This document shows, one piece after another, positions 18,946 to 52,283 of a DNA stretch of 62,336 bases. The first letter of the stretch is position 1. Every line of letters starts with the position of its first letter. The translations under genes and the position numbers were made by a program. Source of the DNA: an uncultured Chitinophagales bacterium (GTDB lineage: Bacteria; Bacteroidota; Bacteroidia; Chitinophagales; UBA2359); the NCBI GenBank assembly GCA_937927195.1, contig CALBCY010000042.1, positions 1 to 62,336 of the forward strand, written 5' to 3'. The notes under the pieces are model-generated. The model had not been told where the DNA came from, ran no database searches, and was given only the letters and a program-made list of their open reading frames with translations.

Positions 18946-19764
18946 TTAAATATTGGCCGTTGCCAATACTTGTATTTCTTCAGATTTGGAGGCAATGTTT
19001 GGTTTACGGTCCGATTCATCGATTGATTCAGAATACAAAGGATGTAATTTTACCACCTCTCCAATGGTTATAACAGCCGGAGATGAAAGTCCTGAATTTT
19101 TAACTGCTTCCTCAATATGGTCTACAGTCGAAAGCACGACTTTTTGTTGTGGTAAAGAACCATTTTGAACGATCATTACAGGAGCATTTCCTCTTTTGTT
19201 TTCTTTGAAAGCTTCGACGATAAAAGGCAATTTTCTTACACCCATTAAAATAACCACGGTGGCGGTTGATTGAGCAGCCAATTGAATATCACTTGAAAAC
19301 TCAGCTAACTTTTTAGTAGCGGTGATTACCCAAAAGCTTTCACTATAATTTCTTCTGGTTAATGGAACAGCCTGCAGTTCAGGAACAGCAATGCAGCTGG
19401 AAATTCCTGGGATAATTTCTACTGGCAAGTCGAATAATTGAGCATATTCTAATTCTTCATGACCTCTGCCAAAAACAAAAGGATCGCCCCCTTTCAATCT
19501 TACCACATGATTTCCTTCCATTGCCTTTTGGGCAATTAAGGCATTGATGTCCTCCTGTTTGTGACTGTGTTGGCCAGCTCTTTTTCCCACAAAAATTCTT
19601 TCTGCAGTTTCTGGAGCATAGTCCAAAAGCGCTTCATTGGAGAGGGCGTCATACAAAACCACATCTGCACAAGTAATTGCTTTTACACCTTTAACGGTGA
19701 TTAAATCTGGATCGCCTGGTCCCGCTCCTACGAGCGTTATTTTTCCATTTTGTATAAATTGCAT
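18946..19764 (-). CDS. cobA: Uroporphyrinogen-III C-methyltransferase
   Basis: This SAM-dependent enzyme methylates uroporphyrinogen III at C2 and C7 to give precorrin-2, the branch point to siroheme. It shows LVGAGPGDPDLITVKG near the N-terminus, DVVLYDAL, the RLKGGDPFVFGRGHEE loop and GISSCIAVPELQAVPLTRR, all classic for SUMT. The last 25 residues (after KLHPLYSES) are a poorly conserved tail. It starts five bases after the sulfite reductase stop, so the two are clearly cotranscribed. Confidence 0.95.
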   Translation of the reverse strand: MQFIQNGKITLVGAGPGDPDLITVKGVKAITCADVVLYDALSNEALLDYAPETAERIFVGKRAGQHSHKQEDINALIAQKAMEGNHVVRLKGGDPFVFGRGHEELEYAQLFDLPVEIIPGISSCIAVPELQAVPLTRRNYSESFWVITATKKLAEFSSDIQLAAQSTATVVILMGVRKLPFIVEAFKENKRGNAPVMIVQNGSLPQQKVVLSTVDHIEEAVKNSGLSSPAVITIGEVVKLHPLYSESIDESDRKPNIASKSEEIQVLATANI

Positions 19765-19769
19765 CTGTA

Positions 19770-21911
19770 TTAGGCTTTGTAGTAATTTCCAATTACAGTT
19801 TTATCATCGCTGTGATTGTCGAGCTGTGCAGCTCTGTATGTGGTTATTAAATTAGAAAACTCCAAAGCCTTGTTTAGGAAGCTTGTAGCAAACTCTTTAC
19901 TTGGTTCTTGCTTTTTAATACTCAAAGCAAATTCTGTAAAATCACTGTCAAGTTTTATCTTGCCGGTCTCAACCATTTTCTCCTGAAAATCATTGATGAT
20001 GCCAATGTGCGTGTTGCATAAAACATCTTCGCTCAACAAAATACCTTTGGCTCCAATTACAACAGAGCTGTAAGTATGGTAAAGGCTATCTGCAAAGGCT
20101 TCTTCTTTAAGTGAAATGCCAGCCAATTCGACTTTCTCTTTTGCTTCGGCTAGAATGGTCCCAACCATATCGTAACTAACACCAGCACATTCTCCTACAC
20201 CAATTGCTTGCTCATAATTGTGGTCTTCTCCCCAATCTTGATAATCACTGTCTGTCAAATTGGTTTTGTCGCCAAGAGGTTTTAAAAGATCGTAAAAATA
20301 CTTTTTACCTAATCTGTAATAATAATCGTTGAAGTATTCCCCTTCGGTTCGTTTATCATCGTAATCATTTAATAAGAAGCGAATAACATCGAGGGTTCTT
20401 TTTGTTGGAACTTTGATAACTTTCTCAGCGACAAAACCTTTGCCTTCTGGATCGACTCCTCCACCCAAAACAACCTGCATGGCTGGTGCGATTAGTGCTC
20501 CTGTTCTGATCGAGCTTCCGTGGAATCCAATTTGTGCCGCCATGTGCTGTCCACAAGCATTCATGCAACCACTGATTTTGATTTGGATGTTGGTTTCATC
20601 ATAATACTCAGGAAACTCATCTTGAATCAATTTTTCAAGGACTTCGCTTAAACCTGTGCTGTTGGTTACTCCTAGATTGCAGGTATCAGTTCCTGGACAG
20701 GCCGTAATGTCACCAATGGTTCCAAAACCAGGATCAGCAAGATCCAATGCTTTGAGCTTAGTGTATAAGTAAGGAATGGTTTCTTTTCTTACAAACTTCA
20801 AGATCATTCCTTGGTTAACAGTTAAGCGAATATCATCTGAACAACATTCTGAAATGACTGCAGCCAGTTGTCTTGCTTTTTCAGCTTGTATGTCTCCTAA
20901 TAATATTTTTACCTTAACCGCATAAAAACCTTTTTGCTTTTGTTCGACAACATTTGTTTTGTGCCATTTTTGATAAGCTTCTTCATCGTCAATTGAATAA
21001 GCTGGAATTTCAAATTCTGGAGCAGGGCCCGCTTGAGGGACAATATCTCTGTCAATAACGACTGATTTGGTTTTGATAGAAATTCTTTCTTCCTCGACTA
21101 ATTTCATGAAAGCTTCCAATCCAAGAGATTTTACCAAATATTTCATTCTGGCCTTGTGTCGTTTGCTTCTTTCTCCATGACGATCGAATACACGGATTGC
21201 TGCTTCCATGAAAGGAATAATTTGGTCTTCTTCCAAGAATTCATAGGCAGTTTGTGCAACAATGGATTGAGCGCCAAGCCCACCAGCGATGACAACTTTA
21301 AATCCGCGAACTTCTTTTCCATCAACTTCTTTCAATTTGGGGATGAATCCAAAGTCATGGAAATAAGTAAAGGCAGAATCTTTTTCACTGGAAGAGAAAG
21401 CAGGTTTGATTTTTCTTCCCATTTCTTGACAAATGGGGTTTCTGAGAAAGTATTTAAATGCTGTATAAACGTAAGGCGAAATATCGAATGGTTCATTGGG
21501 GTCAATCCCTGCCATTGCAGAACCAGTTAGATTTCTTACTGTGTTTCCGCAAGCTTCTCTGGCTGTGATTTGCTTACCTTCAAGCAGTTCCCATATTTGT
21601 GGTGCATCATCCAATTTGACATGGTGCATTTGAATGTTTTGTCTGGTTGTCAGGTGGAGGTTTCCGTTGGTGAATTTTTCTGAAATGTCCGCCATTCTGA
21701 TCAATTGTTCAGGAGTCATTTTACCAAAGGGCACTTTGATTCTGAACATATGAACACCTGTTTGTCTTTGCCCATAAACTCCCCTTGTAAGACGGAAGTG
21801 TTTGAACTTATCCTCCACCATTTTACCGGATTTGAAGTCAGCTATTTTTTGATTGAGCTCAACGATGTCAATTTGAGCCTCTTTACTTACTTGATCATTA
21901 TTAACTTTCAT
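19770..21911 (-). CDS. Siroheme sulfite/nitrite reductase-type protein with C-terminal HEPN-like extension
   Basis: The first about 560 of 713 residues form a ferredoxin-type sulfite/nitrite reductase: two ferredoxin-like half domains (VHMFRIKVPFG and KGFYAVKVKI starts), the siroheme-binding RNLTGSAMAGIDP region and cluster ligands Cys405-x5-Cys411 and Cys449-x3-Cys453. The operon (cobA, siroheme synthase, cysH, FNR) argues for sulfite as substrate, giving sulfide for cysteine. The last about 140 residues (from about 570) are helical and HEPN-like (DSLYHTYSSVVIGAKGILLSE, ALEFSNLITTYR), an extension seen in Bacteroidota homologues. The ATG is 22 bases after an attenuator terminator, so expression depends on readthrough. 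Confidence 0.92.
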   Translation of the reverse strand: MKVNNDQVSKEAQIDIVELNQKIADFKSGKMVEDKFKHFRLTRGVYGQRQTGVHMFRIKVPFGKMTPEQLIRMADISEKFTNGNLHLTTRQNIQMHHVKLDDAPQIWELLEGKQITAREACGNTVRNLTGSAMAGIDPNEPFDISPYVYTAFKYFLRNPICQEMGRKIKPAFSSSEKDSAFTYFHDFGFIPKLKEVDGKEVRGFKVVIAGGLGAQSIVAQTAYEFLEEDQIIPFMEAAIRVFDRHGERSKRHKARMKYLVKSLGLEAFMKLVEEERISIKTKSVVIDRDIVPQAGPAPEFEIPAYSIDDEEAYQKWHKTNVVEQKQKGFYAVKVKILLGDIQAEKARQLAAVISECCSDDIRLTVNQGMILKFVRKETIPYLYTKLKALDLADPGFGTIGDITACPGTDTCNLGVTNSTGLSEVLEKLIQDEFPEYYDETNIQIKISGCMNACGQHMAAQIGFHGSSIRTGALIAPAMQVVLGGGVDPEGKGFVAEKVIKVPTKRTLDVIRFLLNDYDDKRTEGEYFNDYYYRLGKKYFYDLLKPLGDKTNLTDSDYQDWGEDHNYEQAIGVGECAGVSYDMVGTILAEAKEKVELAGISLKEEAFADSLYHTYSSVVIGAKGILLSEDVLCNTHIGIINDFQEKMVETGKIKLDSDFTEFALSIKKQEPSKEFATSFLNKALEFSNLITTYRAAQLDNHSDDKTVIGNYYKA

Positions 21912-21932: not shown

Positions 21933-21967
21933 AAAAAAACCCTTCTTCACGCAGTGAAGAAGGGTTT
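21933..21967 (-). terminator. Attenuator terminator B, before the sulfite reductase gene
   Basis: On the minus strand AAACCCTTCTTCAC (21967-21954) pairs perfectly over 14 bp with GTGAAGAAGGGTTT (21950-21937) around a TGC loop, followed by seven T residues. It ends 22 bases before the sulfite reductase ATG. Its 5' arm CCCTTCTTC can alternatively pair with GAAGAAGGG inside leader ORF B (22026-22018), which would remove the terminator. Confidence 0.93.
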
Positions 21968-21990
21968 TTAAAGACTATTAATTTTTCATT

Positions 21991-22101
21991 TTATACATGC
22001 CAATAGCCTATTATTTTCCCTTCTTCTGTGGAACAACAACAACAGCAGCAGCAACAGCAAGATTGGTCTAATAGGTTGGTATACGTTATTTTTACTTTCA
22101 T
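21991..22101 (-). CDS. Leader peptide B with nine consecutive Cys codons
   Basis: This 36-codon ORF reads M-K-V-K-I-T-Y-T-N-L-L-D-Q-S, then nine cysteines in a row (TGC and TGT codons, 22059-22033), then S-T-E-E-G-K-I-I-G-Y-W-H-V and TAA. The codons for E-E-G directly after the Cys run (GAAGAAGGG) are complementary to the 5' arm of terminator B, 50 bases further on. A ribosome stalled at the Cys codons for lack of charged tRNA-Cys would leave this segment free to act as antiterminator. The start lies six bases after the T run of terminator A, so it is made only when that terminator is read through. The peptide itself probably has no function. Confidence 0.9.
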   Translation of the reverse strand: MKVKITYTNLLDQSCCCCCCCCCSTEEGKIIGYWHV

Positions 22102-22106
22102 GGTAC

Positions 22107-22140
22107 AAAAAAATCCCTTCTTCAATTAAGAAGAAGGGAT
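22107..22140 (-). terminator. Attenuator terminator A, between the two leader ORFs
   Basis: On the minus strand ATCCCTTCTTC (22140-22130) pairs perfectly over 11 bp with GAAGAAGGGAT (22123-22113) around TTAATT, followed by a run of T residues (22112-22107). Its 5' arm CTTCTTC can instead pair with GAAGAAG at 22184-22178, immediately after leader ORF A. Confidence 0.92.
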
Positions 22141-22184
22141 CAGTATTTTTTATTATTTCAAATAATGGGCTGATTAGCTTCTTC

Positions 22185-22235
22185 TCAGAGGTTAATACAA
22201 CAACAACAATTAATATTTGAAACTGATTTTATCAT
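22185..22235 (-). CDS. Leader peptide A with four consecutive Cys codons
   Basis: This 16-codon ORF reads M-I-K-S-V-S-N-I-N-C-C-C-C-I-N-L and TGA, with four TGT codons at 22208-22197. The stop codon overlaps the GAAGAAG antiterminator segment (22184-22178). It is too short for any gene finder, but the Cys run, the following terminator and the repetition of the same design in leader B make it convincing. It is the first of two attenuators in series ahead of the sulfite reductase operon. Confidence 0.85.
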   Translation of the reverse strand: MIKSVSNINCCCCINL

Positions 22236-22330
22236 TATGATTGTTAATTCTACACAAGTTTAAACCATTCTAAACAAATAATCAAATTTTGTTAACAAAT
22301 TTTACCTAACAACAAAAGGTATTGTAAAAA

Positions 22331-51626: not shown

Positions 51627-52283
51627 TCAAACCGAAATCACCTTATTCTCAGCAACAACAAAAACACTGTCGGACTTTTTGGGACTCATTGTAAACAGGC
51701 CAGTGAACGTTCCGAATGCAGGCAGAATACCTTTGCACTGCTCAAAATAAAAGCAAGCCAATCGAACACTTTGTTTGGCTTTTCCTCTCAATCGAACTGC
51801 TGGATGAATATGCCCCGCTAAATTGTAATAATCAGCTGGAGGGTCTTCTGGCTCATGAGTGAAATGAAATGGTGCTTCTAGCATTTCCTCATAAACATTT
51901 ATTCCCAATATTTTATAAAAAGCCATCGGCAATAGATCATGATTGCCCAGAACAAGATCAAAATTTATTTCAGGATAAGAAAGAAAAAAGTCCGTGTATA
52001 AATCCAATTCTTTTCTTTTGATTCTGCTGTGAAATAAATCGCCCAAAAACAAAACGGTTTTTACATCGAACTCTTCAAGAAGCACTTTTAATTTTTTCTT
52101 GTTTTCTCTTGCGCCCAAAGATGGAACAGCAATTCCACCTTTACGAAAATGAGCAACCTTTCCCAAATGAACATCGGCAATGATCAGTTTTTTTTTCTCT
52201 TCCCAATAAATTACTTTGGACGGATGCAAAACAAAGGTTTGTCCTTCAAGTTTCGTTTTTAAACATGTTGAGCTTAGCGGCAT
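51627..52283 (-). CDS. pdeM: Ligase-associated DNA damage response endonuclease PdeM
   Basis: PdeM is a metallophosphoesterase found with a ligase, an Lhr-like helicase and an MBL exonuclease. The 218 residues contain the phosphoesterase ligands IADVHLGK, FLGDLFHSR, LGNHD and AGHIHP. It is the last gene of the cluster exonuclease-ligase-helicase-pdeM on the minus strand, 53 bases after the helicase stop. Its biochemical substrate is not well established; the family name comes from the gene cluster. Confidence 0.92.
   Translation of the reverse strand: MPLSSTCLKTKLEGQTFVLHPSKVIYWEEKKKLIIADVHLGKVAHFRKGGIAVPSLGARENKKKLKVLLEEFDVKTVLFLGDLFHSRIKRKELDLYTDFFLSYPEINFDLVLGNHDLLPMAFYKILGINVYEEMLEAPFHFTHEPEDPPADYYNLAGHIHPAVRLRGKAKQSVRLACFYFEQCKGILPAFGTFTGLFTMSPKKSDSVFVVAENKVISV

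What the first reader, a model, noticed from the sequence alone, without database searches (positions are those of the whole stretch)
21933..22235. Two polycysteine leader peptides with terminators in series before the sulfite reductase operon
Seen directly on the minus strand: leader A (16 codons, four consecutive TGT) then terminator A, leader B (36 codons, nine consecutive Cys codons) then terminator B, then the sulfite reductase ATG 22 bases on. In both, a GAAGAAG segment placed right at or after the end of the Cys run is complementary to the CTTCTTC 5' arm of its own terminator. This is exactly the competing-hairpin layout of amino-acid attenuation. Established knowledge: polycysteine leader ORFs acting as attenuators are reported in mycobacteria. 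A serial two-step version driving a siroheme/sulfite reductase operon in Bacteroidota is, to my knowledge, not described. In series, the two would sharpen the response (readthrough needed twice), with different Cys-run lengths setting different thresholds.
Basis: partly seen in the sequence, partly recalled or inferred. Interest (0 to 1): 0.95.

Follow-up and report, generated by a model that had tools for sequence, protein, structure and literature searches.

The report
Serial polycysteine attenuators before sulfite reductase
Two tiny genes that each encode a run of cysteines, each followed by a transcription stop signal, lie one after the other before the sulfite reductase genes of this bacterium and of many of its relatives, and together they are predicted to let the sulfur-assimilation genes be read only when cysteine runs short, a check that would be made twice in a row.

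Summary
Minus strand 22235-21933 holds leader A (16 aa, Cys4), an intrinsic terminator, leader B (36 aa, Cys9), a second terminator, then the sulfite reductase ATG at 21911. Among 102 loci (own included) with at least 500 nt upstream, a short Cys-rich ORF plus terminator occurs twice in 43, once in 27, never in 32; reverse strands 0 of 102, downstream tiles 1 of 515. RNA just after the Cys run pairs with its own terminator's 5' arm better than with other loci's arms (mean -10.35 against -7.50 kcal/mol; best of 5000 permutations -8.33), though only 55 of 107 units are significant singly. With a ribosome parked on the first Cys codon the half-made transcript folds as an antiterminator in both window leaders. 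So these are most likely trp-type attenuators reading cysteinyl-tRNA charging, in series. Nothing was tested in cells.

The parts
22255..22286 (-). predicted Bacteroidota-type promoter before leader A: TTTG (22286-22283), 20 nt, TAAACTTG (22262-22255)
   Evidence: 1 mismatch to TTTG-N17-23-TAnnTTTG, 19 nt before the ATG of leader A; the consensus is recalled, not from a call
22185..22235 (-). leader A ORF, MIKSVSNINCCCCINL
   Evidence: a first unit like it in relatives
22170..22184 (-). antiterminator left arm A (GAAGAAG 22184-22178 plus inner ATCAG 22174-22170)
   Evidence: fold of the stalled intermediate, -15.4 kcal/mol; shuffle p 0.015
22112..22143 (-). antiterminator right arm and terminator A hairpin (stem 22141-22112), T run after it
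21991..22101 (-). leader B ORF, MKVKITYTNLLDQSCCCCCCCCCSTEEGKIIGYWHV
   Evidence: a second unit like it in relatives
22007..22075 (-). predicted protector hairpin of untranslated leader B (CCTATTA 22075-22069 with TAATAGG 22013-22007), which takes up the antiterminator arm
   Evidence: fold of naked leader B
22002..22026 (-). antiterminator left arm B (GAAGAAGGG 22026-22018 plus inner GGCTATT 22008-22002)
   Evidence: fold of the stalled intermediate, -22.5 kcal/mol; shuffle p 0.005
21933..21979 (-). antiterminator right arm (AATAGTC 21979-21973, CCCTTCTTC 21964-21956) and terminator B hairpin (21967-21937), T run to 21933
19770..21911 (-). sulfite/nitrite-reductase-type hemoprotein, 713 aa, first structural gene
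   Evidence: NirA/CysI-like, below the equivalog cut-offs; NIR_SIR domains
18946..19764 (-). uroporphyrinogen-III C-methyltransferase (siroheme synthesis)
   Evidence: over the cut-off of TIGR01469
18295..18876 (-). siroheme synthase N-terminal domain protein (precorrin-2 dehydrogenase type)
   Evidence: over the cut-off of TIGR01470
17583..18281 (-). phosphoadenylyl-sulfate reductase, CysH
   Evidence: over the cut-off of NF002537
16451..17458 (-). thioredoxin-reductase-like flavoprotein, likely an electron donor
   Evidence: below cut-off; role and membership of the operon inferred

Best explanation
Two short ORFs with runs of four and nine Cys codons, each followed by a terminator hairpin whose 5' arm can also pair with RNA just after the Cys run, lie in series before the sulfite reductase-siroheme-cysH genes, and they are predicted to act as two ribosome-mediated transcription attenuators that both sense charged cysteinyl-tRNA. 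When Cys-tRNA is charged, the ribosome would run to the stop codon and cover or pass the pairing arm, so that terminator A forms and transcription likely ends there. When it is not, the ribosome would stall early in the run, the arm would pair with the terminator's 5' arm (antiterminator), RNA polymerase would read on, and leader B would repeat the same test before the first structural gene. Readthrough would thus be roughly the product of two probabilities: lower leak and a steeper response. Shown by sequence and calls: the ORFs, the hairpins with T runs, mutually exclusive pairings, conservation, and better pairing with own than with foreign arms. Inferred: transcription start, translation, stalling, termination and the response to cysteine.
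For: Anatomy. The genes behind make sulfide for cysteine: SIR-type protein, siroheme enzymes, CysH. Conservation: two units in 43, one in 27, none in 32 of 102 loci; controls 0 of 102, 1 of 515, 0 of 143. Spacing is tight: stop to terminator median 29 nt, 5-95% 20-45 nt. Own-arm pairing exceeds pairing with permuted arms in 107 units (-10.35 against -7.50, sd 0.20) and in 95 dereplicated ones (-10.07 against -7.33, sd 0.21), and among dereplicated A (37), B (36) and single (22) units separately (z -7.8, -6.3, -7.0). In L050 and L051 both arms differ from the window's and still match each other. With the first Cys codon occupied, 62% of the terminator 5' arm is paired with the freed RNA, against 41% for shuffles, 44% for other loci's RNA, and 11% with the ribosome at the stop codon. 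Both window intermediates fold as antiterminators. Cys runs mix TGT (403) and TGC (186); in 12 chosen near pairs of loci 106 aligned Cys codons show 19 synonymous changes, and 11 further positions are Cys in one only. A unit also precedes a MoeZ-like gene in the own genome and cysK/M-family genes in five relatives' loci. Series: 10 nt between stem A and ATG B, under 45 nt in 31 of 43 such loci; a promoter-like site with at most 1 mismatch lies within 90 nt before A in 18 of 43 strict-rule pairs, before B in 1 of 43, in shuffled sequence 6 of 72. In one relative, L122, a tRNA-Cys gene lies between the second terminator and the reductase.
Against: No RNA, ribosome or expression data. With the full transcript the terminator is the best fold in every ribosome state tried, so antitermination must be kinetic, as in other attenuators. 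The pairing test is not significant everywhere: 55 of 107 units at p <= 0.05, B units weakest (13 of 40, against 23 of 41 A and 19 of 26 single). 32 of 102 loci have no unit, among them two whole clades (13 Neolewinella/Lewinella-group rows, 8 Roseivirga-group rows), so the genes can do without it. Of 28 relatives' MoeZ-like loci none carries a unit before that gene. The loci are those nearest the query, not a random sample: of 104 order genomes with the gene only the best 30 were listed as loci, and one search kept the best 80 of 89. A promoter before B is not excluded (7 of 43 loci have 60 nt or more between the units).
Confidence: 0.86

Rival explanations
1. Only one of the two units regulates; the other is a duplicate kept by chance or on its way out. 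Single-unit relatives suggest that one is enough.
For: 27 of 102 loci have one unit; the state two-units or not changes at least 15 times on the tree of 104 rows; B units pair less clearly than A units; L058 has one leader but two terminators, as if leader B were lost. Units A and B of one locus resemble each other more than permuted ones (score 24.4 against 19.8, sd 0.7, 38 loci), as duplicates would, though shared base composition can also do this.
Against: In 43 of 102 loci both units keep ORF, Cys cluster and terminator, and B units on their own pair with their own arms beyond permutation (z -6.3).
Confidence: 0.12
2. The Cys runs act through the peptide or on translation of the next ORF (as described for the mycobacterial polycysteine uORFs) and the terminators are incidental.
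For: Mycobacterial polycysteine uORFs are described as attenuating translation of downstream genes (PMC9031893, passage; PMC13236596, passage).
Against: Terminators come with leaders: of 35 loci without a strict leader only L017, L111 and L122 had a terminator call, and these three have Cys-rich leaders by the looser rule; exceptions are the extra terminators of L058 and L128. The arms are matched to the leaders. Judged by eye, the peptides share little outside the Cys run.
Confidence: 0.05
3. The second unit has its own promoter, so the two are parallel rather than serial controls.
For: No transcription start was mapped; 7 of 43 loci have 60 nt or more between the units and 2 have 90 nt or more, room for a promoter.
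Against: In the window only 10 nt separate stem A from ATG B; a near-consensus promoter before B is found in 1 of 43 pairs.
Confidence: 0.06
4. Chance simple repeats (TGT/TGC microsatellites) beside ordinary terminators.
For: The genome holds 124 matches to TGYTGYTGYTGY, against 50 for the pattern read backwards.
Against: Of 69 regions around the listed matches outside the window only 1 more had leader plus terminator, and it precedes a sulfur-transfer-type gene; controls; synonymous changes.
Confidence: 0.01

Closest known systems
Ribosome-mediated transcription attenuators of amino-acid operons (E. coli trp as described in PMC3641672 section 11; his and leu recalled)
   Same: Short leader ORF with a run of the end product's codons, competing antiterminator and intrinsic terminator, biosynthetic genes behind; leader B also folds a 1:2-type protector hairpin.
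   Different: The amino acid is cysteine, the relatives are Bacteroidota, and two complete same-signal units stand in series.
Polycysteine leaderless uORFs of mycobacteria (Canestrari 2020, doi 10.1111/mmi.14498; paper not held, known here from citations and passages)
   Same: Contiguous Cys codons in a short upstream ORF, proposed to sense cysteine.
   Different: Those are leaderless and described as attenuating translation; here terminator hairpins are the likely switch, ATG A lies 19 nt behind the predicted -7 box, and the unit is doubled.
mgtCBR tandem attenuators of Salmonella (PMC3641672, abstract and section 11 read)
   Same: Two short ORFs in series in one leader RNA.
   Different: There the two sense different signals (ATP, proline) and the hairpins do not resemble intrinsic terminators; here both runs are Cys and both hairpins do.
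Tandem riboswitches with two terminators (metE of B. clausii, mentioned) and tandem T-boxes (recalled)
   Same: Serial terminators giving a combined response.
   Different: There RNA senses ligand or tRNA directly; here a translating ribosome would be the sensor, and Rfam finds no known family.
Leader-peptide attenuation noted in Flavobacterium psychrophilum (PMC9723704, passage)
   Same: Clues of attenuation by leader peptides before amino-acid operons in Bacteroidota.
   Different: The passage names neither cysteine nor serial units; its supplementary tables were not readable here.

Membership tests
Ribosome-mediated (trp-type) transcription attenuator | short leader ORF rich in codons of the end product of the operon | tested here: met
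   Cys4 and Cys9 before sulfide/cysteine genes
Ribosome-mediated (trp-type) transcription attenuator | intrinsic terminator between leader ORF and first structural gene | tested here: met
   a hairpin with T run after each leader, by sequence; termination itself untested
Ribosome-mediated (trp-type) transcription attenuator | mutually exclusive antiterminator that a ribosome at the stop codon blocks | tested here: met
   by computation only:
Ribosome-mediated (trp-type) transcription attenuator | readthrough rises when the tRNA is uncharged | not testable with these tools
   needs cells or in vitro transcription-translation
Ribosome-mediated (trp-type) transcription attenuator | 1:2 protector hairpin in untranslated RNA | tested here: inconclusive
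   clear in leader B, weak in leader A; relatives not examined
Mycobacterial leaderless polycysteine uORF | start codon at the 5' end of the RNA | tested here: inconclusive
   predicted -7 box ends 19 nt before ATG A; no mapped start
Mycobacterial leaderless polycysteine uORF | contiguous Cys codons upstream of cysteine genes | tested here: met
mgtCBR-type tandem attenuators of different signals | two leader ORFs read different signals | tested here: not met
   both runs are Cys
T-box or riboswitch leader | conserved RNA domain known to Rfam | tested here: not met
   0 gathering hits in the window; only sub-threshold matches in the leader, E 0.05 or more

The most novel reading that the evidence does not exclude
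Series attenuation is a general circuit element of this part of the Bacteroidota: a biosynthetic operon is guarded by two complete, same-amino-acid, ribosome-sensing terminators in a row, which multiplies two readthrough probabilities into a sharp, low-leak switch, and in sulfur genes the leaders read the sulfur amino acids jointly (Cys runs flanked by Met codons) as one sulfur-status sensor.
Probability: 0.45. Interest if true: 0.82.

Novelty: new variant of a known kind. Interest (0 to 1): 0.72.

Why it matters
Attenuation by leader peptides is textbook, as a rule with one unit per operon (recalled). The one paper on tandem leader-ORF attenuators that I read calls its two-signal leader a singular example. 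A conserved same-signal pair in 43 of 102 loci for cysteine, and in two relatives for histidine, gives a natural test of why a cell would square a regulatory response, with single-unit and no-unit relatives as natural controls. It also gives a predicted cysteine regulon, readable from DNA alone, for bacteria most of which are known here from metagenome assemblies.

Tried and rejected
Rfam: no family at gathering score in the window; sub-threshold hits in the leader belong to unrelated families with E 0.05 or more and were treated as chance. The sigma-70 scan found 17 promoter-like sites against 16.4 expected and says nothing. CysD: 20 loci, one unit, about 750 nt before the gene, in L201. The four loci over the cysKM cut-off (L219-L222) have no unit before the gene; L219 has one weak call on the other strand. 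MoeZ-like gene: 29 loci, a unit before it only in the own genome; L289 and L291 have weak other-strand calls. leuA-type: the 6 best of 30 loci scanned, none. hisG: the own genome has no match. Cross-pairing of leader A's arm with terminator B of the same locus is a little better than permuted (-8.24 against -7.24, sd 0.34); the likeness of the two units explains it and I did not take it as a mechanism. Run-length thresholds: weak support only. Microsatellite origin rejected. In the 32 leaderless loci no unit was found in the rest of the upstream sequence held.

Rows dropped before counts: L026 (no start of the gene); 21 duplicate loci; L009, L016, L029, L085 and L100, with under 500 nt upstream, from the 102-locus counts; the tree has the 104 rows with at least 250 nt upstream and over 400 aa, L128 among those left out. 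L023 and L123 have two strict leaders but only one unit by the looser rule; L087 and L122 the reverse. 24 of 124 genome matches of TGYTGYTGYTGY were not listed and not examined.

Full report
WHAT IS THERE. On the minus strand, from 22235 down to 21911, the window holds leader A (16 aa, four TGT codons), a terminator hairpin with a T run, leader B (36 aa, nine mixed TGT/TGC Cys codons), a second terminator, and the ATG of a 713-aa sulfite/nitrite-reductase-type protein. Behind it on the same strand are a uroporphyrinogen-III methyltransferase, a siroheme-synthase N-terminal domain protein, CysH and a thioredoxin-reductase-like flavoprotein. The first protein matches several NirA/CysI/Sir models below their equivalog cut-offs and carries NIR_SIR domains; with siroheme genes and cysH beside it, sulfite reduction is the likely role (inference).

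IS IT MORE THAN CHANCE. I collected loci with a relative of this protein: whole-genome searches (25 of 99 relatives' genomes; 104 of 396 genomes of the order, of which the best 30 were listed as loci) and 80 named genome contigs (the best 80 of 89). After removing duplicates 107 loci had the gene's start. With a run of at least three Cys, 43 had two leader ORFs, 29 one and 35 none. Requiring a terminator behind each ORF and at least 500 nt of upstream sequence, the strict rule found at least one unit in 66 of 102 and two in 38 of 102, against 0 of 102 reverse strands, 0 of 510 dinucleotide shuffles, 0 of 515 tiles downstream and 0 of 143 tiles further upstream. A looser rule (three Cys in seven residues, larger hairpin loops) gave 43 with two, 27 with one, 32 with none, with controls 0 of 102, 1 of 515 and 0 of 143. 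L050 (the same contig as L002, from the genus mate G001, protein 74% identical) and L051 keep both units. The loci are the nearest relatives of the query, so these fractions are not those of the phylum.

THE PAIRING. For 107 leader-terminator units I took the RNA from the last two Cys codons to just before the terminator and asked how well it pairs with the terminator's 5' arm. Own arms give -10.35 kcal/mol on average; arms dealt out among loci give -7.50 with sd 0.20, and the best of 5000 permutations is -8.33. For 95 dereplicated units the figures are -10.07, -7.33 and 0.21. A (37), B (36) and single (22) units all show it (z -7.8, -6.3, -7.0). Unit by unit, 55 of 107 reach p <= 0.05 against dinucleotide shuffles: 23 of 41 A, 13 of 40 B, 19 of 26 single, so second units are the least clear. 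The window's two units have p 0.015 and 0.005. In L050 and L051 both arms differ from the window's and still match each other.

THE RIBOSOME'S PLACE. With RNA hidden up to 15 nt beyond the start of the first Cys codon and RNA polymerase stopped before the terminator's 3' arm, both window leaders fold into a two-helix antiterminator (-15.4 and -22.5 kcal/mol); with the ribosome at the stop codon only the terminator remains; the naked leader B takes the arm up in a 5' hairpin. Over 107 units the freed RNA pairs with 62% of the terminator's 5' arm, shuffled RNA with 41%, RNA of other loci with 44%; 70 of 107 units reach 60%, against 16% of shuffles and 22% of swaps; with the ribosome at the stop the mean is 11%. 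In 56 of the 63 units with the better pairing (p <= 0.1 by the plain shuffles) the arm lies within the reach of a ribosome at the stop codon. For complete transcripts at equilibrium the terminator is the better fold in every state tried, so the switch would be kinetic.

SERIES. In the window 10 nt lie between stem A and ATG B. Over 43 loci with two units the median is 31 nt; 31 have under 45 nt, 7 have 60 nt or more, 2 have 90 nt or more (two negative values come from the choice of start codon). A match with at most one mismatch to the Bacteroidota promoter consensus (recalled: TTTG, about 20 nt, TAnnTTTG) lies within 90 nt before A in 18 of 43 strict pairs, before the single leader in 10 of 29, before B in 1 of 43, and in 6 of 72 shuffles. 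In the window it is TTTG-N20-TAAACTTG, 19 nt before ATG A. So B is most likely transcribed only after readthrough at A. Run length is 5.6 on average in A and 6.2 in B, B longer in 22, shorter in 12, equal in 9 of 43 (p 0.046); total Cys is higher in B in 31 and lower in 4 of 43, but B leaders are also longer (34 against 24 aa). That is thin support for graded thresholds.

EVOLUTION. On a quick tree of 104 rows of the reductase, two-units against not changes at least 15 times and some against none at least 7 times (quick method without mixture model; it warns of two long branches that meet). Two clades have none: 13 rows around Neolewinella/Lewinella and 8 around Roseivirga; 11 further leaderless rows lie elsewhere. 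In the 32 leaderless loci no unit lies further upstream in the sequence held; in two of them (L022, L024) the next gene upstream is within 36 nt on the same strand, so the reductase is probably not the first gene there.

A WIDER REGULON. In the window's own genome 100 of 124 matches to four Cys codons were listed; 69 fetched regions around those outside the window gave one more unit, MTLNTKNNMDFTFCCCCFLKR plus a -17 kcal/mol terminator, right before a ThiF-rhodanese protein of the MoeZ/MoeB type. Among the 28 relatives' loci of that protein none has a unit before it. Of 44 loci with a match to the cysK/M family (30, 14, three of which overlap earlier ones) five have units before the gene: L245 and L248 one, L247, L253 and L255 two. 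The one protein tested, that of L247, is nearest cysM, below its cut-off. In several relatives a match of this family and the MoeZ-like gene lie within about 2.5 kb on one contig. A poly-Cys leader with MM beside the run precedes a gene that looks like O-acetylhomoserine sulfhydrylase in L274 (named from its sequence, not by a family search). In L122, where two leaders mix MM and CC, a tRNA-Cys gene (anticodon gca, 2866-2939) lies between the second terminator and the reductase; the other 40 loci scanned have no tRNA.

NOT ONLY CYSTEINE. As a control I looked before hisG in relatives: 9 of 30 genomes have a match (the own genome none), and 7 of 10 loci have a poly-His leader plus terminator, two of them (L298, L300) two in series. 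Six leuA-type loci had none. So the serial design is not special to cysteine.

METHIONINE. Met codons are over-represented within three codons of the Cys run: 74 of 565 codons against 43 of 1459 elsewhere in 95 dereplicated leaders; codons of the same bases (GTA, GAT, AGT) are not, and within three codons after the run an in-frame ATG is found in 26 of 95 leaders against 4 and 3 in the other frames. ATGs before the run might be start codons; those after it cannot be. The window's own two leaders have no Met beside the run, so this concerns relatives.

LITERATURE. Searches of the held library listed no paper on a poly-Cys leader attenuator in Bacteroidota or on a same-amino-acid pair. Leader-peptide attenuation is mentioned before amino-acid operons of Flavobacterium psychrophilum (PMC9723704, passage) and short ORFs reminiscent of it in Bacteroides thetaiotaomicron (PMC7366714, passage). 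Mycobacterial polycysteine uORFs are known here through citations and passages only (the paper itself is not held). Most subscription papers are missing from the library, so absence here is weak.

VERDICT.

Noticed in passing
L122 2866-2939: In this relative a tRNA-Cys gene (anticodon gca) lies between the second terminator and the reductase, behind two leaders that mix Met and Cys pairs.
   Followed up: partly
L249 (own genome C176), before the gene at 2217; L265 1310-1451: One more poly-Cys leader plus terminator in the same genome, before a MoeZ/ThiF-rhodanese-type gene, perhaps part of a thiocarboxylate route to cysteine.
   Followed up: partly
L247 1051-1422; L253 376-790; L255 (minus strand) 597-870: Two poly-Cys units in series before cysK/M-family genes in relatives.
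   Followed up: partly
L298 from 1147; L300 from 1146 (oriented with hisG): Two poly-His leaders in series, each with a terminator, before hisG in relatives: same-signal series attenuation for another amino acid.
   Followed up: partly
L274 2753-2884: Leader MIQYTQNMMCCCCCQPRQPDSYWCR plus terminator before what looks like a methionine-synthesis sulfhydrylase.
   Followed up: no
leaders of many relatives, e.g. L112, L116, L064, L122: Met codons cluster beside the Cys runs, in frame only, as if Cys and Met charging were read together.
   Followed up: partly
L058, 277 to 59 nt before the reductase ATG: Leader B seems lost while a second terminator remains behind terminator A: a natural one-sensor, two-terminator variant.
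   Followed up: no
L128, about 250 nt before the reductase ATG: A poly-Cys run before the first of two terminators is out of frame with its apparent ATG (sequence error or decay).
   Followed up: no
L068, 200 nt before the reductase ATG: Leader with Cys5 and a strong hairpin but no T run behind it.
   Followed up: no
L021 upstream of the reductase: A leaderless locus has a gene 121 nt upstream that looks like an Rrf2-type regulator (judged by eye from its first residues), a possible replacement control.
   Followed up: no
51649-51738 of the window, minus strand: A GTG-start Cys-rich short ORF with a weak hairpin (-8.7 kcal/mol), probably chance.
   Followed up: no
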